Origin: an uncultured Prochlorococcus sp.
Lineage (GTDB): Bacteria > Cyanobacteriota > Cyanobacteriia > PCC-6307 > Cyanobiaceae
Length of the DNA: 63,813 nt
Assembly (NCBI GenBank): GCA_902534675.1
Contig: CACAQQ010000002.1
Coordinates: 1 to 63,813 of the forward strand
Direction: 5' to 3'
The position numbers and the translations under genes were made by a program. The notes under the pieces are model-generated. The model was not told the origin of the DNA, did not search any database, and was given only the letters and a program-made list of their open reading frames with translations. Of this stretch, positions 40,536 to 48,213 are shown piece by piece (position 1 is the first letter of the stretch; every line of letters starts with the position of its first letter).

Positions 40536-41774
40536 TTGAGCCAGTCTTATTCCAATTGGTCATTTATTGATGAAGGTAACATAACACCCCATGGTTTCCT
40601 TTTTGCAGGAATATCTGCTGGATTAAAAGCATCTAATAAAAAAGATTTAGCACTTATACTCGCTCCAGAAGGAAGTATTTTTAGCGGGATGTTTACCCAA
40701 TCATTGGTTCGTGCTTCATGTGTTGATATTTGTGAGGAAAGGATAAAAAAAACTTCGGGTTTCTTACGAGCAATATTAATTAATTCTGGTCAAGCAAATG
40801 CGTGTACAGGAAATCTTGGACTTAAACATTTTCAAATTGCTACAGCAAAGATTGCAGAACTTTTAGGAATAAAAGAAGAAGAAGTTTTAATGTGCTCAAC
40901 TGGTGTAATAGGTGTTCCTATACAAATAAATGATTTAGTAAAAAATTTGCCGAATTTAGTAAGTGATTTAAAAGTTAATAACTTTCAAAATGCAGCAGAA
41001 GCAATTTTAACTACTGATTTGACTTTGAAAAAAGTTTTAATAGAGACGATTATTCAAGGTAGAAAGATAAAAATAGCAGGATTTGCAAAAGGTTCAGGGA
41101 TGATTTACCCCAATATGGCTACAATGCTTGCTTTTTTATCTTGTGACGCGGGTATTGAAAAAGAAGAATGGGATAAAATGATTACTATTGCGGGTAAAAA
41201 ATCTTTTAATGCAATATCAGTTGATGGAGAGACAAGTACAAACGATTCTTTTATCGGAATAAATGCAGGAGAGAAAATTGATAAAAGATTTTTACCAATT
41301 ATCCAACAAGGTATTGATATTGTTTGTCAAAACTTGGCAAAAAATATTGCAAGGGATGGAGAGGGAGCAAATTGTTTATTAGAGGTTTTGGTTAAAGGAG
41401 CAAAAAATACTGATGATGCAATTATGGTTGCTAAATTTATTTGTAATTCTGCATTGGTGAAAACTGCTATACATGGCTGTGATCCTAATTGGGGAAGAAT
41501 TATTTCTGCTGCAGGTAACTCTGGAGTTAAATTCAATTTAAATGACGTTGACTTATATATAGGTAATGATCAAATTTTGGAAAAGGGCAAGTTAAATAAA
41601 TATGATTCGCAAAAAGTAACAGACTATATTAAGTCCAGAATGAAAGGTAGATATTTAGTTGATGATATTGTACAAATTATGATTAATCTAAACTCTGGCG
41701 AATCGAAAGGTAAAGCTTGGGGATGCGATCTTTCTAAAAAATATGTTGAAATAAACTCGGAGTATACAACTTAG
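40536..41774 (+). CDS. argJ: Bifunctional ornithine acetyltransferase / N-acetylglutamate synthase
   Basis: Recycles acetyl groups in arginine synthesis. The autocleavage site lies in KGSGMIYPNMATMLAFL, where the threonine after MA is the new N-terminal nucleophile. GAVTSN-equivalent N-terminal segments and NSGQANACTG, VDGETSTNDS and DPNWGRIISAAG are present. 412 residues. Start is TTG at 40536. Its stop codon marks the left edge of the accessory island: the 14 bases around it (41769 on) recur at 45493. Confidence 0.95.
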   Translation: MSQSYSNWSFIDEGNITPHGFLFAGISAGLKASNKKDLALILAPEGSIFSGMFTQSLVRASCVDICEERIKKTSGFLRAILINSGQANACTGNLGLKHFQIATAKIAELLGIKEEEVLMCSTGVIGVPIQINDLVKNLPNLVSDLKVNNFQNAAEAILTTDLTLKKVLIETIIQGRKIKIAGFAKGSGMIYPNMATMLAFLSCDAGIEKEEWDKMITIAGKKSFNAISVDGETSTNDSFIGINAGEKIDKRFLPIIQQGIDIVCQNLAKNIARDGEGANCLLEVLVKGAKNTDDAIMVAKFICNSALVKTAIHGCDPNWGRIISAAGNSGVKFNLNDVDLYIGNDQILEKGKLNKYDSQKVTDYIKSRMKGRYLVDDIVQIMINLNSGESKGKAWGCDLSKKYVEINSEYTT

Positions 41775-41847
41775 TTAAGATCCATTGCGGGGCAAGCGAT
41801 CTTAGTGTTTCTAAAAATTAATAAACCGGTAATAAACCAGTAAATTT

Positions 41848-43161
41848 TTATTGGAGTTTATAAACTGCTAAATCTTTTGATTTACTTTCACCTAGTGCAA
41901 TCTTTTCAATTTTTTCTAATCTTGCCATCAAGATAGAAAGTTTATTCTCTAATTTTTGATTTTTGGAAAGTATTGTTTTGTTTTTCTTTTCAAGTGATTC
42001 AATTTTTGTCTCCATTACTTTTTTATCTTTCATAGAAATTTGAGTAGGTTTATTTAATTCACCTAATTTAAAAACAAATCCTGTTTTAATGACCCCATTG
42101 TCTAAAGTTCCTTCACCATAAGATTTAGACCCACCGAAAACATATGAGCCACCTGCATTTATATCAACTCTTTCATTAACTTTTGAAGCACATCCAAAAC
42201 CTAATGCATATCTACTGCTATACGCACCTGTGCCAACACCACAACTTAATTTAGATTCTTTTGATGTCTGAGGTAAGGCAGATAATGCTGCTGTAAGTGC
42301 TGTTGAACCTGCAACTCCTTCCCCAAGATTTTTAATATTAGATGAATTGGTTGAAATATTTGAGGTATTAGTAGAAATATCATTTTTGTTCGTTGTAACT
42401 TGTGCGCTATCTCCTGCTGTAACTTCTACTCCATCAATTAATAATTTACTTCCATCAATATTTATTGGGATTTTATTACCATCAGCATCTTGTGCATAAA
42501 GAGGTTGAACTTTTCTTCCATCGCTTAATGTTTGTTCCTCAACTGTTGTTATCAAAGAGTTTTTACCAAAATGAATGGTATTGTCTGATTGATTATATGT
42601 AATAAGTGGATAATCTTTGACACTTAATCCAGTATCTGTGAGATCTACTTCATATCCATCTAATCCTATTTGAATAGTTCCATCTGAATTTTTTGTAATT
42701 AATGCTTCTCCATCAATAATGAACCCATCTTCAACAATTTCCAATTTATCGCCAGAAAGTTTAATTTTCCCTTTGCCTGTGCCAACATTCACACTATTAT
42801 CTGATGTAATTATTTTTTCTCTAGGTATTACCTTATCGTAATTTGTAGCAAAGTCTGTTATTTGATCGACGGTTTCATCTGATATGTTGTATCTATAAAC
42901 TGTCCCTCTATCGTGAACAATGATATTATTTTCGCCGTCAACATAATGTTTTGCAATATCATCACTAGAAGAACCATTGTTTCCTATTGCTTTTTTTAAA
43001 GTACAACTATTTGTTTTGGCTATACATTGATAGATATGTATCCCCTGAAATCCATCAATTCTGTCGTTTTTTACTGCCCAATAATCCCACTCTGCTCGTG
43101 CTGGCATTGCTCCAAAAAACAATGACATGCCAAAGAAAGATAATGAAATTAATTTTTTCAT
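41848..43161 (-). CDS. Trimeric-autotransporter-like outer-membrane protein A
   Basis: 437 residues, probably surface-exposed. Signal peptide (about 1-23, ends ARA). A short head (24-115) with a beta-rich segment and one cysteine pair; a stalk with two copies of a roughly 32-residue repeat (SDGTIQIG...); a heptad stretch NDISTNTSNISTNSSN; then a YadA-type anchor (about 285-375): GEGVAGSTALTAALSALPQ and four short beta strands (LSCGVGTGAY, YALGFGCAS, DINAGGSYVFGG, IKTGFVFKLG). Unlike known YadA proteins, about 70 residues of coiled coil follow the barrel. Close paralogue at 45573. The family assignment rests on motif reading and needs a profile search. Confidence 0.7.
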   Translation of the reverse strand: MKKLISLSFFGMSLFFGAMPARAEWDYWAVKNDRIDGFQGIHIYQCIAKTNSCTLKKAIGNNGSSSDDIAKHYVDGENNIIVHDRGTVYRYNISDETVDQITDFATNYDKVIPREKIITSDNSVNVGTGKGKIKLSGDKLEIVEDGFIIDGEALITKNSDGTIQIGLDGYEVDLTDTGLSVKDYPLITYNQSDNTIHFGKNSLITTVEEQTLSDGRKVQPLYAQDADGNKIPINIDGSKLLIDGVEVTAGDSAQVTTNKNDISTNTSNISTNSSNIKNLGEGVAGSTALTAALSALPQTSKESKLSCGVGTGAYSSRYALGFGCASKVNERVDINAGGSYVFGGSKSYGEGTLDNGVIKTGFVFKLGELNKPTQISMKDKKVMETKIESLEKKNKTILSKNQKLENKLSILMARLEKIEKIALGESKSKDLAVYKLQ

Positions 43162-43523
43162 TGTATTAACTGAATTATTATTAGTTTCCTAATTTTTTTA
43201 AATTTTTGCTTTTTTTGTTATTTTTCGCTGAAATTTTAAGATCTTTATCGTTAAAAAATTTTCCATATTTTTCCTCAATAAAACACTGACCTAATGATGT
43301 CAGTTGATTTCAGAGGATAAAATTAAAATAAAACACTAATTCAATCTTCGTAAACGCAGTTATAGTCTTGTTTTAGGGTCTATGTAGAGATCAATAGCGA
43401 ATATACAACTTAAAGCTAAAACTTAGTTATAGCAATAGATTTGAAGATTGTATATATGTTGCTTACGGTCTGCTTACATTAAATTAGGACTTATTATTAC
43501 TAATTTAATTTAGTCGAAGTAGG
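43162..43523. other. Intergenic region inside the island
   Basis: 362 bases without a credible gene, next to paralogue A's start. Contents seen: two copies of AATAAAACACT about 50 bases apart, a small inverted repeat CTGAC...GTCAG near 43287-43304, two GCTTAC repeats in 11-bp register (43458-43479), and a weak inverted repeat (AAATTAG...CTAATTT) near 43485-43510 that could end transcription of the minus-strand small gene. Confidence 0.5.
43458..43479. repeat. Two GCTTAC repeats in 11-bp register
   Basis: GTTGCTTACGG directly followed by TCTGCTTACAT. This is the same core and the same 11-bp period as the six-unit array at 45285-45350. It may be a two-site operator for an OmpR-family regulator, or a remnant of a longer array. 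Confidence 0.5.
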
Positions 43524-43698
43524 TTAAACATATCCGTTAACTATGGTTGGATAATCTTTGTTTTTGAACATTTTTCTATAATCATCATGCAATCTTTCAG
43601 TTGCTAATATTCTTTTTTTCATTGCATCTCTAATTAAATCCATCTCATTTAATTTTTGATTGAGAATGGAGAATGGAGAATGGAGTAGTTAGTTTCAT
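43524..43698 (-). pseudogene. Small island gene frameshifted by a 7-bp repeat
   Basis: A strong ribosome-binding site (AGGAGG, minus strand) precedes ATG at 43698. Translation gives MKLTTPFSIL and then leaves frame because GAGAATG (plus strand, 43662-43682) occurs three times in tandem; it stops after 17 codons. With two copies (or five) the frame stays open for 55 residues: MKLTTPFSILNQKLNEMDLI, then a helical, charged stretch, to ...YPTIVNGYV and a TAA at 43524. It is either a slipped pseudogene or a phase-variable gene. An internal ATG at 43643 would still yield the last 39 residues. Confidence 0.6.
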
Positions 43699-43739
43699 AA
43701 AACCTCCTTTTTTATTAATAAAGACTAAAAATTAATAAC

Positions 43740-43922
43740 TCAGTCGCAGTAAATTAAACAATTTTGATTTGTTGGATGTTCTCTACATTCTTTCTCCCAA
43801 AAGTTTTGAAACTCAGGGGTGCATTTTCCAAGTTCTTTTGGGGTTTCGTTTAGATTTAATCCTGCATAATTAAACGCAGTTAAGTATCTTGGAAGAATGT
43901 TAAATTGATTAAATAGTTTCAT
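43740..43922 (-). CDS. Small island hypothetical protein
   Basis: 60 residues, function unknown. AGGAGG lies 6 bases before ATG, the strongest kind of ribosome-binding site in this window. The first residues (MKLFNQFNILP) resemble those of the neighbouring frameshifted gene. The C-terminal half has four cysteines (KCTPEF, KECREH, QNCLIYCD), suggesting disulfides or metal binding. No signal peptide is obvious. The shared motif ACTAGGGTAATAAT lies about 60 bases upstream (minus strand, 43980-43993). Confidence 0.7.
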   Translation of the reverse strand: MKLFNQFNILPRYLTAFNYAGLNLNETPKELGKCTPEFQNFWEKECREHPTNQNCLIYCD

Positions 43923-43979
43923 AAGACCTCCTAGATCTATATCTATATTGTCCTCCTATTGACTTGAAATTCATAGAGT

Positions 43980-43993
43980 ATTATTACCCTAGT
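43980..43993 (-). promoter_or_regulatory. Promoter-like motif ACTAGGGTAATAAT (copy 1)
   Basis: Perfect 14-base match to a second copy at 47258-47271. Contains a TAATAAT -10-like core and precedes the 43740-43922 gene on the minus strand. Confidence 0.4.
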
Positions 43994-44140
43994 AGAAGTG
44001 CTTTGTGGTTGTCACGACTATCTTTTCTCCTTCAGTAGGAGTAGAAATAATTCAAGAGTCAAAAGCACTTCATCGACTTTGTGGACAGCGAGGTGCATAC
44101 GACTCGAAGAGGGCAAACAAATGCCCTCTTATTTTATTTT
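43991..44140 (+). ncRNA. Candidate structured small RNA
   Basis: About 150 nt. A perfect 10-bp stem joins GAAGTGCTTT (43995-44004) with AAAGCACTTC (44062-44071), enclosing a second hairpin CTCC/GGAG with flanking TTTCT/AGAAA pairing. The 3' end is a textbook intrinsic terminator (AAGAGGGC / GCCCTCTT, 44107-44130, then ATTTTATTTTT). A promoter is plausible: TATTGA at 43957, TATTAT at 43979, 16-base spacer. The best open frame across it (43998-44186) has no similarity to anything and runs through the terminator. It is not recognised as a known RNA family. Confidence 0.6.
44107..44140 (+). terminator. Intrinsic terminator of the candidate small RNA
   Basis: 8-bp stem AAGAGGGC/GCCCTCTT, 8-base loop, then an A/T run with nine T of eleven. 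Orientation is plus, so it ends the small RNA, not the minus-strand gene. Confidence 0.75.
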
Positions 44141-44231
44141 TAGTAAACTTTTACTGATTCTTTTCGCTAAATTTTATCGACATTAACATTTAGGATATGA
44201 ATGGTTAGATTTATCAAAATAGGAAACAATT

Positions 44232-44525
44232 ATGTTTGTAAGTATTGATTTATGTTTAGTCCCTATTGGAGTTGGAACTTCCCTATCTCCTTATATAAAG
44301 GAGTGTATTGAAGTTATCAAAAATGAAGGTCTTAACTATGAATTAGGAGCGAATGGAACTGCAATAGAGGGAGATTGGGATAAAGTATTTAAATGTGTTA
44401 AAAAATGCCATAAAAAAATTCATTCAAAAGGTGCGCCTAGAATTTATACAACAATGAAAGTAAATACTAGAACTGATAAAGAACAAAAATTCTCAGATAA
44501 AGTAAAAAGTGTATTAGATAAATAA
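44232..44525 (+). CDS. UPF0045 (MTH1187/YqgV-type) protein
   Basis: 97 residues with the compact ferredoxin-like fold of the UPF0045 family: SIDLCLVPIGVGTSLSPYIKECIEVI, NYELGANGTAIEGDWDKVF, RIYTTMKVNTRTDK. Family members bind thiamine or a related small ligand in some structures; the role here is unknown. ATG at 44232. The stop TAA shares a base with the next ATG, so a downstream microprotein is coupled, and both precede a strong terminator at 44688. Confidence 0.85.
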   Translation: MFVSIDLCLVPIGVGTSLSPYIKECIEVIKNEGLNYELGANGTAIEGDWDKVFKCVKKCHKKIHSKGAPRIYTTMKVNTRTDKEQKFSDKVKSVLDK

Positions 44526-44653
44526 TGGAAAAAGAGCGAAATTACGATAATGATGGATTAGACCCATCCGAAGAGTATTTTAAAAAGAAGGAAAAAGGTA
44601 ATGATGATGATACCTATTTTCCTCAAGAAGAATCACAACCACCACATTATTAA
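44525..44653 (+). CDS. 42-residue acidic microprotein coupled to the UPF0045 gene
   Basis: Frame MEKERNYDND... to ...SQPPHY*, starting in the overlapping TAATG at the end of the UPF0045 gene and ending 34 bases before its terminator hairpin. Highly charged (Glu, Asp, Lys), no membrane span. The coupling and terminator position argue that it is translated. Function unknown. Confidence 0.6.
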   Translation: MEKERNYDNDGLDPSEEYFKKKEKGNDDDTYFPQEESQPPHY

Positions 44654-44687
44654 ACACTTGGATATTTTTTGATATTCAATTTACATT

Positions 44688-44715
44688 AGAGGGTATAACA
44701 ACTACCCTCTTTTTT
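44688..44715 (+). terminator. Intrinsic terminator of the UPF0045 operon
   Basis: AGAGGGTA / TACCCTCT perfect 8-bp stem with a 7-base loop, followed by five T. It ends the two-gene unit at 44232-44653. Confidence 0.8.
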
Positions 44716-44904
44716 AATGTCCATTAATACATTTCTTTTGCTGTTATTGGTGATTGCAAATTACATAAACTTATTTTTAAATATAAAAAAAAGAAAAACA
44801 TGATTGAAAGGGTTATGTTTTGGGATATCATCAAGAATTTTCATAAAAACTAAACTATCACTTTAATATGAATCAATGAGAAGAAAAATTATCCTTGATA
44901 TTTA

Positions 44905-45222
44905 ATGTTGCGACTTTTTCCACTGCCGATTTTTATTGGCATTTATTTATTCTCTTACTGGAGATGTAGAAAAAATATTGCTGATAGTGATAAGCAACTA
45001 AAACCATGTATTGATTGGGCATATGTAAAAAATTTACCTCTCCCACCAAAACCTTCATTTATCGAGTTTTATATTGTTTATGTTTCTTCTTTTTTTAAAT
45101 ATCCCTTTGGGGTAATTATTCAACAACTACCTTTCTCAAAGAAAGTAAGATACTACGAAAGAGAAATGAAATTAATATTTGATAAATGGAATTTAGAAAA
45201 AATTAAAAAAATAACTAACTAA
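44905..45222 (+). CDS. Hypothetical membrane-associated protein
   Basis: 105 residues, no family recognised. A hydrophobic N-terminus (about 3-17, LFPLPIFIGIYLFSYW) and a second partly hydrophobic segment (55-75). The remainder is basic and helical (YEREMKLIFDKWNLEKIKK). The start is ATG at 44905. It sits alone between the UPF0045 terminator and the 11-bp repeat array. Possibly an island-specific gene. Confidence 0.55.
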   Translation: MLRLFPLPIFIGIYLFSYWRCRKNIADSDKQLKPCIDWAYVKNLPLPPKPSFIEFYIVYVSSFFKYPFGVIIQQLPFSKKVRYYEREMKLIFDKWNLEKIKKITN

Positions 45223-45572
45223 TTTATTAAAGTTATCACTCAGATATTGATTTAATTTAGACTTGTTTCAGAAAGCATTTTTTGTTTTCTTACAGTTTTC
45301 TTACATTTTTCTTACAGTTTTCTTACAGTTTTCTTACATTTTGCTTACGGTTGCAAATTAGAAATTTAGTAATAACTAAATTTTTAATTTCTACTTACAC
45401 TTTGCTTATTATTGTATTGACTTAAAAAAAGTCAGTTATTGCAGTCAATTATTAGTGATTATCTTTGTATAGAAATGCATAGAGATTATATGACTTAGTT
45501 AAGATCAATTGCAAGGTAGGGGATTTTAGCACTTTTAACAATTCATAAACCGGTAATAAATCAGTGAATTAA
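45223..45572. other. Intergenic region carrying a phased repeat array
   Basis: 350 bases without a gene. Holds the six-unit 11-bp repeat at 45285-45350, a looser CTTACA/GCTTAT pair near 45394-45412, an inverted repeat GACTT...AAGTC near 45419-45434, and, from 45493 on, sequence homologous to the segment after argJ (41769 on) that marks the edge of the autotransporter duplication. Confidence 0.6.
45285..45350. repeat. Six tandem 11-bp repeats, consensus TTTTCTTACAG
   Basis: Units start at 45285, 45296, 45307, 45318, 45329 and 45340; five are TTTTCTTACAG or TTTTCTTACAT and the last is TTTGCTTACGG. Eleven bases is close to one helical turn, so all cores face the same side. The core resembles half-sites of the cyanobacterial HLR1 element bound by RpaB, but spaced by 11 rather than 10. 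Confidence 0.85.
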
Positions 45573-47105
45573 TTATTGGAGTTTATAAACTACTAAATCT
45601 TTTGATTTAAGATCTCCAAGTGCTATTTTTTCAAGTCTTTCTAATCTTGCTAAGAGTTCAAATTTTTCATTTTCAAATTTTGTAATTTTTTTATTTAGAT
45701 TTTTATTTTCGCTTTTTAGGTCAGTTATTTCATTAGTAAGTTTTTGTTTATCTTTCATACTTATTTCAACTGGTTTATTCAATTCACCCAATTTAAAGAC
45801 AAATCCCGCTTTAATAACCCTATTGCCTAAAGAGTCTGCTCCATAAGATTTAGAACCACCAAATACATATGATCCTCCTGCATTAATATCTACTCTTTCG
45901 CTTACTTTCGATGCACATCCAAAACCTAATGCATATCTACTGCTATACGCACCTGTGCCAACACCACAACTTAATTTAGATTCTTTTGATGTTTGTGGTA
46001 AGGCAGATAATGCTGCTGTAAGTGCTGTTGAACCTGCAACTCCTTCCCCAAGATTTTTAATATTAGAAGAATTGGTTTTAATATTAGAAGAATTGGTTGA
46101 AATATTGGAGGTATTAGTGGAAATATTAGAAGCATTGTCATCAATTTGTCCTTGGACACTTGTACCATTTATCAAAAGGTCTGAGCCGTAGATATTAAGT
46201 GGAATTTTTGTATTATTATCATCCTCTGCCCATAAGTGGTGGACTTTTCTCCCGTCACTTAATGTTGAGTGATCTTCGGGCGTGATTAATGAGTTTTTAC
46301 CGATATGAATATTACCGTCTGCTTGCTTGGTAATCATTGGATTACCATCTATACTCAGTCCTTGAGAAGTAATGTCAATATCATTTCCATCCGCTCCAAT
46401 CTGGATGGATCCATCAGAATTTTTAGTAAAAATGGCTTCACCATTTATATTCAATCCGTCTGCTACTACATCAACATCATTCCCATCGGCACCAATTTGA
46501 ACTGAACCATCACTATTATTTTTTACTAAAGTTGAACTATTAGTTCCGCCTGTGCTTATTCCATCATCATCTATTCTTATAAGTTCTTCTGTACCAGAAC
46601 CACCAAGTGAGATGAATTTAGTATCAGTTGCACCACAAGAAGCACTAGTTGTATTACATTTTTTATCTGCAAGATTTTCCATCTTTACAGGTATATCAAT
46701 AAACATTGGACTTCCAGAACCAGGCAGATTAGTGATATTTGTAAATCCTTCGAATGCATTCGTCTCCATATCAAATACCCTTATTCTCCTCTGTTCAATT
46801 CCATTTCTTGGTGGTTCTAAAAAATATATTTTTCCAGTTTGCTGATTAACAGTATAGTCAGTTGCACTAAATGAATTTTCCACGGAGTCTGGAAAAATAT
46901 TTGATATTATGATGCTTGCCTCTCCATCAGATTTTAGTTTGTAAAGGTGGACTTGTTTGTTACCGTTATTTAAAAGTTCTGAAGAAACGAAATATCCTAA
47001 GTCTGATGTTGCAGTTGAAACTTCTCCAGCCAATGAAGATAAGGGTGTTATTAATAAAGTTGAACTGAATAATGAAGTAAATATTTTTTTGAGTGGTCTT
47101 CTCAT
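45573..47105 (-). CDS. Trimeric-autotransporter-like outer-membrane protein B
   Basis: 510 residues, paralogue of the protein at 41848. Signal peptide (1-27, ends SSLAG). The head (28-170) differs strongly from A and has a propeller-like pattern (KIYFLE...RIRVFDMETN). The stalk has three 32-residue repeats with SDGSIQIGADGND and GLSIDGNPMITK. The heptad region is longer than in A by one NSSNIKT unit. The YadA-type anchor (about 350-440) is nearly identical to A's, and a coiled coil of about 70 residues follows, ending KDLVVYKLQ. Both copies are minus-strand. Confidence 0.7.
   Translation of the reverse strand: MRRPLKKIFTSLFSSTLLITPLSSLAGEVSTATSDLGYFVSSELLNNGNKQVHLYKLKSDGEASIIISNIFPDSVENSFSATDYTVNQQTGKIYFLEPPRNGIEQRRIRVFDMETNAFEGFTNITNLPGSGSPMFIDIPVKMENLADKKCNTTSASCGATDTKFISLGGSGTEELIRIDDDGISTGGTNSSTLVKNNSDGSVQIGADGNDVDVVADGLNINGEAIFTKNSDGSIQIGADGNDIDITSQGLSIDGNPMITKQADGNIHIGKNSLITPEDHSTLSDGRKVHHLWAEDDNNTKIPLNIYGSDLLINGTSVQGQIDDNASNISTNTSNISTNSSNIKTNSSNIKNLGEGVAGSTALTAALSALPQTSKESKLSCGVGTGAYSSRYALGFGCASKVSERVDINAGGSYVFGGSKSYGADSLGNRVIKAGFVFKLGELNKPVEISMKDKQKLTNEITDLKSENKNLNKKITKFENEKFELLARLERLEKIALGDLKSKDLVVYKLQ
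46290..46580 (-). repeat. 96-bp (32-residue) tandem coding repeats in paralogue B
   Basis: Three diverged in-frame copies encode the stalk unit SDGSxQIGxDGN-x-VDxx-GLxIxG. Paralogue A has two. Copy-number differences between the paralogues suggest expansion by unequal exchange. Confidence 0.7.
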
Positions 47106-47365
47106 TTCTATAAAAAATAGGGATACTTTACAAATATATAAATTTTATTAATTTAAAACTTTTTTAAAATTAGATTAATTAAATTTTTTTCAATTTCAAT
47201 TTTTTTTGCTCTCAAGTGATAGCCAATTGCCATCCCCCTTATTAATACGAATATTAAACTAGGGTAATAATGTGATTATTATCTAAAAATTAACTTAAGT
47301 GGTAGCATTGGAATAACAGCAAGGTATATATATTATTTGCCCAAGGTGGAAAATAAAAACAAATA
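47106..47365. other. Intergenic region upstream of paralogue B
   Basis: 260 bases without a credible frame. It contains the start-proximal region of paralogue B (no clear ribosome-binding site) and, on the plus strand, the second copy of ACTAGGGTAATAAT (47258-47271), with nothing obvious downstream before the minus-strand small membrane gene. An unannotated plus-strand transcript is possible. Confidence 0.4.
47258..47271 (+). promoter_or_regulatory. Promoter-like motif ACTAGGGTAATAAT (copy 2)
   Basis: Exact copy of the motif at 43980-43993, opposite strand. If it is a promoter here it would drive a transcript antisense to the gene at 47366-47608. Confidence 0.35.
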
Positions 47366-47608
47366 TTAATTCACTTTAAGTAAATCTATTGGTAGATATT
47401 CATTTATATAAAGAAACAGTATTGTTAAAGTTCCAATTACAGAACCTATAAAACCTCCAAAAAAATTAACTAATAATCCAGATTGTCTAGTTATTGTTTT
47501 TTCGTTTTTGTCTTCTTCAAAATTAGGAGAATCAACTACTTTTAAGCGCTGATTGGTTGTGGGTTGTTTAAGTTGTTGGTGTCGGATGAGGGCTTCGAAA
47601 TCAGGCAT
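47366..47608 (-). CDS. Small membrane protein overlapping the ParA gene
   Basis: 80 residues from ATG 47608 (MPDFEALIRHQQLKQP...). The start lies inside the end of the ParA-like gene in another frame, a 67-base overlap. A basic, charged N-terminal half precedes one membrane span (about residues 44-66, LLVNFFGGFIGSVIGTLTILFLYI) and a short tail. It could be a membrane partner of the ATPase; this is inference from position only. A longer frame from 47632 exists but is less likely. Confidence 0.55.
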   Translation of the reverse strand: MPDFEALIRHQQLKQPTTNQRLKVVDSPNFEEDKNEKTITRQSGLLVNFFGGFIGSVIGTLTILFLYINEYLPIDLLKVN

Positions 47609-48213
47609 GGAATTTGTGAGGCAATTGAACAATAAGCAGACCAGCCCGTCATTCGACGAGGATCTGATCTACCTAAATCGTCTACAGCTTCAAATACAGC
47701 ATTACCAGAGGCTTCTGCTTTATCAAATGCTGAAAGTAAGGGTATAAATGTATCAAAAACATATAAACCAAAATTTTCTAAAGCTGCTTTGGCTTGTTGC
47801 GCTGCTTTTTGCTGTCTAAAATCAACTTTTACTATTACTACTGCATGGTTAACTTTTAAGTTACTTAATAAATTAGCTAGTTCAACAGTTAATTCCACTG
47901 ATCTTGCTTTTGCAGTTGTGGGCAAGATAACTAAATCTGAACCATAAGCTAAGTGTTTAAGTTCTTCTTGATCACTACTAGCCTGGCCATCAGTTATTAC
48001 AATTTCTGATGATCTTGATGCTTTAGCAGCTGCACTGACCGGGAAAACTGGAAATGGAAGATTGCCTCTTGATGCGTATGCTAATGCAGATCTATTCTTG
48101 TCTGCATCTACTATGCAAACTTTTTTACCTTCAGAATGCCAAACACTAGCAAGGTGAATACTTGTGCAGGTCTTGGCTACACCCCCTTTTTGTCCGCAAA
48201 CGGTAATGAACAA
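47542..48213 (-). CDS. Orphan ParA/MinD-type ATPase
   Basis: 223 residues. Deviant Walker A GQKGGVAKT at the N-terminus (usual KGGxGKT; here alanine replaces the glycine before lysine), a Walker A' region with VDADKNRSA (VDADPQ-like) and VITDGQASS. No ParB or parS is visible nearby. Such stand-alone ParA proteins position carboxysomes, chemoreceptors or plasmids; the cargo here is unknown. It starts the operon with the overlapping small membrane gene and is divergent from the aldo/keto reductase. Confidence 0.85.
   Translation of the reverse strand: MFITVCGQKGGVAKTCTSIHLASVWHSEGKKVCIVDADKNRSALAYASRGNLPFPVFPVSAAAKASRSSEIVITDGQASSDQEELKHLAYGSDLVILPTTAKARSVELTVELANLLSNLKVNHAVVIVKVDFRQQKAAQQAKAALENFGLYVFDTFIPLLSAFDKAEASGNAVFEAVDDLGRSDPRRMTGWSAYCSIASQIPCLISKPSSDTNNLNNPQPISA

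What the first reader, a model, noticed from the sequence alone, without database searches (positions are those of the whole stretch)
41848..47105. Two trimeric-autotransporter-like surface proteins with a coiled coil after the barrel
Seen: both proteins have a signal peptide, a variable head, 32-residue stalk repeats, NTSNIST heptads, and a four-strand anchor beginning GEGVAGSTALTAALSALPQ. Then about 70 residues of coiled coil follow. Known: in YadA-type proteins the barrel is the last element and its terminal residue is read by the BAM machine. Inference: here the extra coil would sit in the periplasm and could clamp the protein to the wall or to a partner. Surface adhesins are unexpected in such a streamlined open-ocean phototroph; a role in cell contact or phage adsorption is possible.
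Basis: partly seen in the sequence, partly recalled or inferred. Interest (0 to 1): 0.8.

Follow-up and report, generated by a model that had tools for sequence, protein, structure and literature searches.

The report
Trimeric surface adhesins with periplasmic coil
Some strains of the ocean's commonest photosynthetic bacterium carry swappable three-chain surface adhesins whose membrane anchor continues into an extra three-helix coil inside the cell envelope, an uncommon design so far described mainly in Veillonella and Fusobacterium.

Summary
Two minus-strand genes (437 and 510 aa) in a Prochlorococcus single-cell-type assembly encode type Vc (trimeric autotransporter) proteins: signal peptide, unlike heads, beta stalk, NTSNIST heptads, four anchor strands (PF03895, 1e-8), then a ~46-residue helix after the barrel. 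The helix is a real coiled coil: position d is 99% hydrophobic over 64 tails, the trimerisation motif R-h-x-x-h-E occurs in 48 of 53 tails (shuffles: 1.2), and its distance from the barrel differs between homologues by whole heptads. Nearly every readable homologue in the Prochlorococcus/Synechococcus family has the tail; other cyanobacterial anchors end at the barrel. A Cys-X16-Cys pair, placed to staple the first beta hairpin, accompanies all tailed anchors. Post-barrel coils are known in Veillonella and Fusobacterium (CbpF), so this is a new cyanobacterial variant. No wall-binding domain, fixed length or universal end peptide was found, so I favour a trimer-assembly and anti-pull-out coil over a wall clamp. 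The genes sit in a strain-variable slot between argJ and ParA (empty in 64 of 136 genomes, adhesins in 31). Both heads resemble two propeller blades per chain, possibly a six-bladed trimeric propeller.

The parts
41848..43161 (-). TAA1, 437-aa trimeric autotransporter gene
   Evidence: ORF; PF03895 1.1e-8; AF2 model
43093..43161 (-). TAA1 signal peptide, residues 1-23
   Evidence: direct reading of sequence
42808..43092 (-). TAA1 head; seven strands at residues 27-101, propeller-blade-like
   Evidence: AF2; Foldseek PDB hits largely beta-propellers, E > 0.001
42412..42768 (-). TAA1 beta stalk
   Evidence: AF2 strands; 32-residue period weak
42322..42393 (-). TAA1 NTSNIST-type heptads leading into the barrel
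   Evidence: sequence; 21-nt repeats D2
42061..42273 (-). TAA1 four-strand YadA anchor (C307 and C324 form CX16C)
   Evidence: PF03895; AF2 strands 305-366; CX16C
41896..42033 (-). TAA1 post-barrel coiled coil, residues 377-422; RLEKIE trimer motif at 41905-41922
   Evidence: AF2 helix pLDDT ~77-84 over most of it; heptads; family statistics
45573..47105 (-). TAA2, 510-aa trimeric autotransporter gene
   Evidence: ORF; PF03895 2.4e-8; AF2 model
47028..47105 (-). TAA2 signal peptide, residues 1-26
   Evidence: direct reading of sequence
46671..47027 (-). TAA2 head; strands at residues 37-124, two propeller-like blades
   Evidence: AF2; Foldseek includes 8pjq SAKe2BE, prob 0.92
46197..46613 (-). 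TAA2 beta stalk with 32-residue repeats
   Evidence: 20/32 identities at period 32; AF2 strands
46005..46157 (-). TAA2 stalk helix with NTSNIST heptads, residues 317-367
   Evidence: AF2 helix; repeats D2
45789..45974 (-). TAA2 four-strand YadA anchor (C380 and C397 form CX16C)
   Evidence: PF03895; AF2 strands 378-439; Foldseek to AtaA, Hia, YadA anchors
45621..45758 (-). TAA2 post-barrel coiled coil, residues 450-495; RLERLE trimer motif at 45630-45647
   Evidence: AF2 helix pLDDT 70-87 over most of it; heptads p=0.001
41775..47350 (.). Variable island holding both genes, inserted directly after the argJ stop codon and before ParA
   Evidence: comparison with empty site L146; slot survey

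Best explanation
These are trimeric autotransporter (type Vc) surface proteins of a picocyanobacterial branch in which the chain continues past the 12-strand barrel into a parallel three-helix coiled coil on the periplasmic face. The coil most likely helps the three chains find and hold each other during barrel assembly and then acts as a stop that resists pulling the trimer out of the membrane, doing in cis part of what partner proteins such as TpgA do for other TAAs. A cross-strand disulfide at the periplasmic rim of the first hairpin probably stiffens the barrel. Outside the cell, swappable heads, probably two propeller blades per chain, make contact with something strain-specific. Shown: TAA fold family, the coil with its trimer motif and heptad-quantised length, the Cys pair, family-wide conservation, the variable slot. 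Inferred: trimeric state, periplasmic location (from topology), assembly and retention role, head ligand.
For: YadA_anchor hits; Foldseek matches to AtaA, Hia and YadA anchors at probability 0.99-1.00. Post-barrel helix in both AF2 models. R-h-x-x-h-E in 48 of 53 tails against shuffle mean 1.2, max 6, in the exact g-a-b-c-d-e register; position d 99% hydrophobic in 64 tails. Barrel-to-motif distance congruent to 4 mod 7 in 67 of 77 distinct tails, at six different lengths. Tail in all but two of the readable own-family anchors and in all family-wide hits from named genomes that could be scored. CX16C in every tailed anchor; VKOR in 13 of 13 genomes. CbpF aligns to barrel plus tail and forms stable trimers in E. 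coli. Length variability and lack of a universal end peptide, and no OmpA, YkuD or SLH hits, disfavour a wall tether.
Against: No trimer was modelled; AF2 ran on monomers, with barrel pLDDT mostly ~45-60. Asn at 42% of a positions also occurs in dimeric coils, so oligomer state rests on the motif plus the trimeric barrel. No experiment shows that the coil aids assembly or retention. Homologues are related, so motif and register counts overstate independence.
Confidence: 0.58

Rival explanations
1. The coil tethers the adhesin to the peptidoglycan or another wall polymer, as proposed for the SLH and OmpA domains of other TAAs.
For: Precedent: post-anchor SLH or OmpA domains in Veillonella, Negativicutes and Streptobacillus. 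A basic residue near the C terminus is common (K in the last four residues of 61 of 70), loosely recalling Lpp.
Against: No wall-binding domain by Pfam; no YkuD L,D-transpeptidase, OmpA or SLH hit in 13 genomes; coil length varies by heptads, from 32 to 67 residues before the motif; last residue not conserved.
Confidence: 0.2
2. The coil is a docking site for a dedicated periplasmic partner or chaperone, or for BAM, replacing the missing terminal aromatic residue of the beta signal.
For: Tail-less cyanobacterial anchors end ...GRLGLFFEF*...GIFFQF*, while most tailed ones read ...GFVFKLG + tail, so the terminal aromatic is lost. TpgA shows that TAA anchors can bind periplasmic partners.
Against: No conserved partner gene next to the TAA outside the slot flanks; ParA is cytosolic in type and is present whether or not the slot is filled. 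Surface positions b and c of the coil are variable while the core is conserved.
Confidence: 0.17
3. The tail has little function: it is the 3' part of a recombination module, kept because it marks the chromosomal slot.
For: End-peptide type tracks chromosomal site, not barrel class (41 to 1 against 0 to 13). Barrel, gene end and downstream DNA are conserved between the two window copies (88, 87 and 79%) while the coil between them is 22 of 47 identical.
Against: The coil keeps its core, motif and register despite sequence drift, and it occurs in Synechococcus and Cyanobium away from this slot. That needs selection on structure.
Confidence: 0.05

Closest known systems
Veillonella parvula trimeric autotransporters (VtaA-I etc.; PMC7549365, PMC5491611)
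   Same: YadA anchor followed by a C-terminal coiled-coil (or SLH) domain inferred to be periplasmic; gene cluster with domain swaps
   Different: Diderm Firmicute; some have SLH. That paper lists cyanobacteria only as having YadA anchors. No Cys-X16-Cys staple was reported there in the passages read, and the sequences were not compared here
Fusobacterium nucleatum CbpF (PDB 9GH4/9GH5; PMC12012533)
   Same: Profile aligns over barrel and post-barrel coil, including the ...GF.xKLG end of the last strand; experimentally a stable trimer
   Different: No barrel cysteines in the aligned segment; beta-roll head; host CEACAM1 ligand
AtaA-TpgA of Acinetobacter sp. Tol 5 (PDB 9VNJ; PMC13082670)
   Same: Anchor fold (Foldseek prob 1.00); idea of periplasmic reinforcement of the anchor
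   Different: Reinforcement comes from a separate peptidoglycan-binding protein, not a cis coil; no OmpA-domain protein was found in 13 Prochlorococcus-genus genomes
Yersinia YadA and Haemophilus Hia
   Same: Four anchor strands per chain, coiled-coil stalk entering the barrel
   Different: Barrel is the C terminus, no tail, no Cys pair in the aligned region
Dorison et al. 2026 bioRxiv survey of TAAs (known only through its citation in PMC13082670)
   Same: Said to report C-terminal periplasmic extensions as widely distributed
   Different: Not readable here; it may already include cyanobacteria

Membership tests
Type Vc trimeric autotransporter (TAA) | YadA anchor domain PF03895 | tested here: met
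   1.1e-8 and 2.4e-8, above cut-off
Type Vc trimeric autotransporter (TAA) | Sec signal peptide, passenger N-terminal to the anchor | tested here: met
   direct reading; no dedicated predictor was available
Type Vc trimeric autotransporter (TAA) | Four anchor strands per chain preceded by a helix | tested here: met
   AF2 models; Foldseek to Hia, YadA, AtaA
Type Vc trimeric autotransporter (TAA) | Homotrimer forming a 12-strand barrel | not testable with these tools
   only monomer prediction offered
Classical (proteobacterial-type) TAA | Barrel is the extreme C terminus with a terminal aromatic | tested here: not met
   about 70 residues follow ...GFVFKLG. Not required of TAAs in general
TAA with post-anchor coiled coil (Veillonella/Fusobacterium type) | Coiled coil after the YadA anchor | tested here: met
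TAA with post-anchor wall-binding domain (SLH/OmpA) | SLH or OmpA domain after the anchor | tested here: not met
   no Pfam hit in the tail
Phage YadA-domain structural proteins | Sequence relatives on phage genomes | tested here: not met
   no match in phages or viral contigs. Fold-level anchors exist in enterobacterial phages

The most novel reading that the evidence does not exclude
Prochlorococcus carries a strain-swappable surface recognition system: trimeric autotransporters with a previously undescribed head in which each chain gives two propeller blades, so that the trimer closes a six-bladed propeller (a lectin-like ring), mounted on a disulfide-stapled barrel locked from inside by a trimeric coil and exchanged as cassettes in the argJ-ParA slot, plausibly to vary cell contact, grazing or phage attachment.
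Probability: 0.35. Interest if true: 0.75.

Novelty: new variant of a known kind. Interest (0 to 1): 0.5.

Why it matters
It shows that TAAs with a cis periplasmic coil also form a family-wide design in marine picocyanobacteria, with a Cys staple that is absent from the classical anchors examined. That gives a clean natural comparison (tail-less against tailed cyanobacterial anchors) for asking what BAM reads at the end of a trimeric barrel. It also puts a name on a presence/absence surface locus in the most abundant photosynthetic organism, a candidate for the strain-specific surface differences thought to matter for phage infection and grazing.

Tried and rejected
Phage origin: tblastn of both proteins against phages and a viral-contig scan found no relative, so rejected. 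Wall tether by a known chemistry: OmpA, SLH and YkuD all absent at threshold in 13 genomes; SLH may be too divergent for Pfam, so this weakens rather than excludes it. Braun-lipoprotein-like C-terminal lysine: the last residue is variable. Conserved end peptide SKDLAVYKLK as a functional dock: it follows the chromosomal slot rather than the barrel type, so I do not read function into it. Head identification by sequence: no Pfam, PHROGs or NCBIfam match and no PDB sequence relative; only fold comparison suggested a propeller, below significance (no hit at E <= 0.001). A barrel tree to date the gain of the tail was too poorly resolved at its base. Matches at profile positions 21-60 in family f23 (L162, L164-L168) look like other small barrels and were not counted as TAAs. 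Some loci (L044, L049, L058) were not read because of contig-end coordinate shifts, and L051 is not a convincing anchor.
Full report
WHAT IS THERE. The window comes from a Prochlorococcus-type assembly of 819 kb in 56 contigs, about 53% complete (the nearest named relatives are Prochlorococcus single-cell genomes). Both reported proteins exist, on the minus strand: TAA1, 41848-43161 (437 aa) and TAA2, 45573-47105 (510 aa). Both match Pfam YadA_anchor above its cut-off (1.1e-8 and 2.4e-8). They share the segment from about residue 137 onward at 67% identity, but their heads are unrelated by sequence. The 32-residue stalk repeat is strong in TAA2 and weak in TAA1.

STRUCTURE. AlphaFold2 monomer models give the same plan twice: head strands, a beta stalk, the membrane-entering helix (clear in TAA2, broken and low-confidence in TAA1), exactly four anchor strands (305-366 in TAA1, 378-439 in TAA2), then one helix of 46 residues (377-422 and 450-495, pLDDT about 70-87 over most of it). 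Foldseek links the anchor to AtaA, Hia and YadA anchors with probability 0.99-1.00. Overall pLDDT is only 63-70 and no trimer could be modelled, so the models support the order of elements, not the quaternary structure.

THE POST-BARREL COIL IS REAL. In each window protein the 47 residues have hydrophobics at 10 of 13 a/d positions (shuffle p 0.006 and 0.001, with the same register in both). Over 64 distinct homologous tails, position d is hydrophobic in 99% of cases (mostly Leu), a is Asn, Leu or Ile, and b, c and g are charged. The motif R-h-x-x-h-E occurs in 48 of 53 tails against a shuffle mean of 1.2 and maximum of 6; that it is a known trimerisation motif of short coiled coils is general knowledge, not tested here. 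It falls in the g-a-b-c-d-e register that the motif requires. The distance from barrel end to motif is 4 modulo 7 in 67 of 77 distinct tails, realised as 32, 39, 46, 53, 60 and 67 residues: insertions and deletions come in whole heptads. Sequences are related, so these counts are not independent. Six of the eleven different distances fall in one class of seven, which is the more conservative form of the same statement. The two window coils share only 22 of 47 residues while their barrels share 81 of 88: sequence drifts, register does not.

DISTRIBUTION. In the genus, 54 of 200 genomes (20 of 66 near-complete) have a YadA anchor; in the family 20 of 201, in 14 of 59 genera. In the own family all but two of the readable anchors carry the tail; the exceptions are L035, a different anchor type in a 62%-complete genome, and L050. 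A scan of named genomes returned 72 loci, all Prochlorococcus, Synechococcus or Cyanobium apart from one SAR116 MAG fragment, and every complete tail that could be scored was present. Some Synechococcus-like members are 2,170-3,602 aa long with anchors followed by tails of 118-169 aa. In other cyanobacterial families the anchors end at the barrel (0-3 residues).

CYSTEINES AND THE LAST STRAND. Every tailed anchor has Cys-X16-Cys at the start of strand 1 and the end of strand 2. With the two-residue turn of the hairpin these two residues face each other, so a cross-strand disulfide at the periplasmic rim is likely (inference). VKOR, a disulfide-forming enzyme, is present in 13 of 13 genus genomes. 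The Cys pair also occurs in four tail-less anchors (L050, L069, L161, L163), so it probably predates the tail. Tail-less cyanobacterial anchors end in an aromatic (...GLFFEF*...GIFFQF*), whereas most tailed ones read ...GFVFKLG before the tail; CbpF likewise reads ...GFTLKLG.

COMPARISON WITH WHAT IS KNOWN. Bechon et al. 2020 (PMC7549365) found an SLH or coiled-coil domain after the YadA anchor in all Veillonella TAAs, and extra domains in other Negativicutes, Synergistetes and Fusobacteria. [quoted passage not shown] Poppleton et al. 2017 (PMC5491611) propose that the SLH version stabilises the trimer through peptidoglycan. The best sequence hit in the PDB to barrel plus tail is F. nucleatum CbpF (9GH4). 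Its barrel is predicted at residues 378-431 of a chain ending at 479, and it formed stable trimers when made in E. coli (PMC12012533): direct evidence that BAM tolerates a tail. AtaA is reinforced from the periplasm by the separate peptidoglycan-binding protein TpgA (PMC13082670). [quoted passage not shown] The coil is therefore not a new kind of thing; the cyanobacterial family, its Cys staple and its genomic setting are what I did not find described.

MECHANISM. The anchor topology puts the chain after strand 4 in the periplasm (established for TAAs). What is conserved in the tail is the coil core and the trimer motif; what is not conserved is length, surface, and end peptide. The end peptide follows the chromosomal site (41 to 1 against 0 to 13) and not the barrel class. 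This pattern fits a part whose job is trimerisation, aiding assembly and resisting extraction, better than a fixed-reach wall tether or a specific dock. Complete genus genomes gave no OmpA, YkuD or SLH hits (the SLH negative is weaker because SLH can be divergent), which removes the known chemistries for wall attachment. The assembly and retention role itself is inferred and untested.

HEADS. Foldseek of the two independent models returned mainly beta-propellers for the head region, including 8pjq, a SAKe2 design (as I recall, a two-blade self-assembling Kelch; prob 0.92) for TAA2, and several propellers, a SAKe6 design and a fucose lectin for TAA1. No such hit reached E 0.001. Each head shows seven or so strands, about two blades. 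Three chains would make six blades, a common propeller size. I treat this as a hypothesis at roughly one in three.

GENOMIC SETTING. The two genes lie in an island between argJ and a ParA-like gene. Compared with an empty site (L146), the insertion begins right at the argJ stop and ends near 47351. Among 136 genomes with both flanks on one contig, 64 have a gap under 400 bp (mostly 175 bp), 31 have one to four TAAs, and 41 have other DNA. Flanking genes are often 85-99% identical while the TAAs are typically 30-80%. Synechococcus RCC307 has a TAA between the same two flanks (L119). Copies of the argJ/TAA 3' junction recur inside the island, suggesting cassette exchange by recombination. No sequence relatives were found in phages or viral contigs.

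VERDICT. Observation confirmed; interpretation partly supported. A new variant of a known kind, of moderate interest, with a more exciting possibility in the head and in the variable slot.

Noticed in passing
41775-47350 (argJ-ParA slot): Strain-variable insertion slot: empty (mostly 175 bp) in 64, TAA-bearing in 31 and otherwise occupied in 41 of 136 genomes.
   Followed up: partly
41742-41773, 43381-43412, 41760-41846, 45484-45570: Copies of the argJ 3' end / TAA downstream junction recur inside the island as direct repeats, as if cassettes were inserted there by recombination.
   Followed up: partly
45273-45349: Tandem array of CTTACA every 11 nt (GTTTTCTTACA), a spacing like that of OmpR/PhoB-type regulator sites; not upstream of either TAA.
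   Followed up: no
43740-43922 (-): 60-aa ORF ending ECREHPTNQNCLIYCD, a cysteine pattern that recalls the CP12 C terminus; no supporting Pfam match.
   Followed up: no
44232-44525 (+): Thiamine-binding protein (PF01910, 7e-35) as island cargo; close copies next to TAAs in L107, L113, L134 and L139.
   Followed up: partly
47542-48213 (-): ParA-like gene, mostly 93-99% conserved in 167 of 200 genus genomes and bordering the slot; not linked to TAA presence.
   Followed up: partly
L093-L097, L121, L125, L128-L131, L136, L137: A further set of TAA genes away from the argJ slot with their own end peptides (SSSEMISVATKD, KLSKGL), carrying the same barrel types as slot genes.
   Followed up: partly
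L039, L040, L041, L047, L048: Giant open frames (2,170-3,602 aa) in Synechococcus-like genomes ending in a CX16C YadA anchor plus a long coiled tail.
   Followed up: partly
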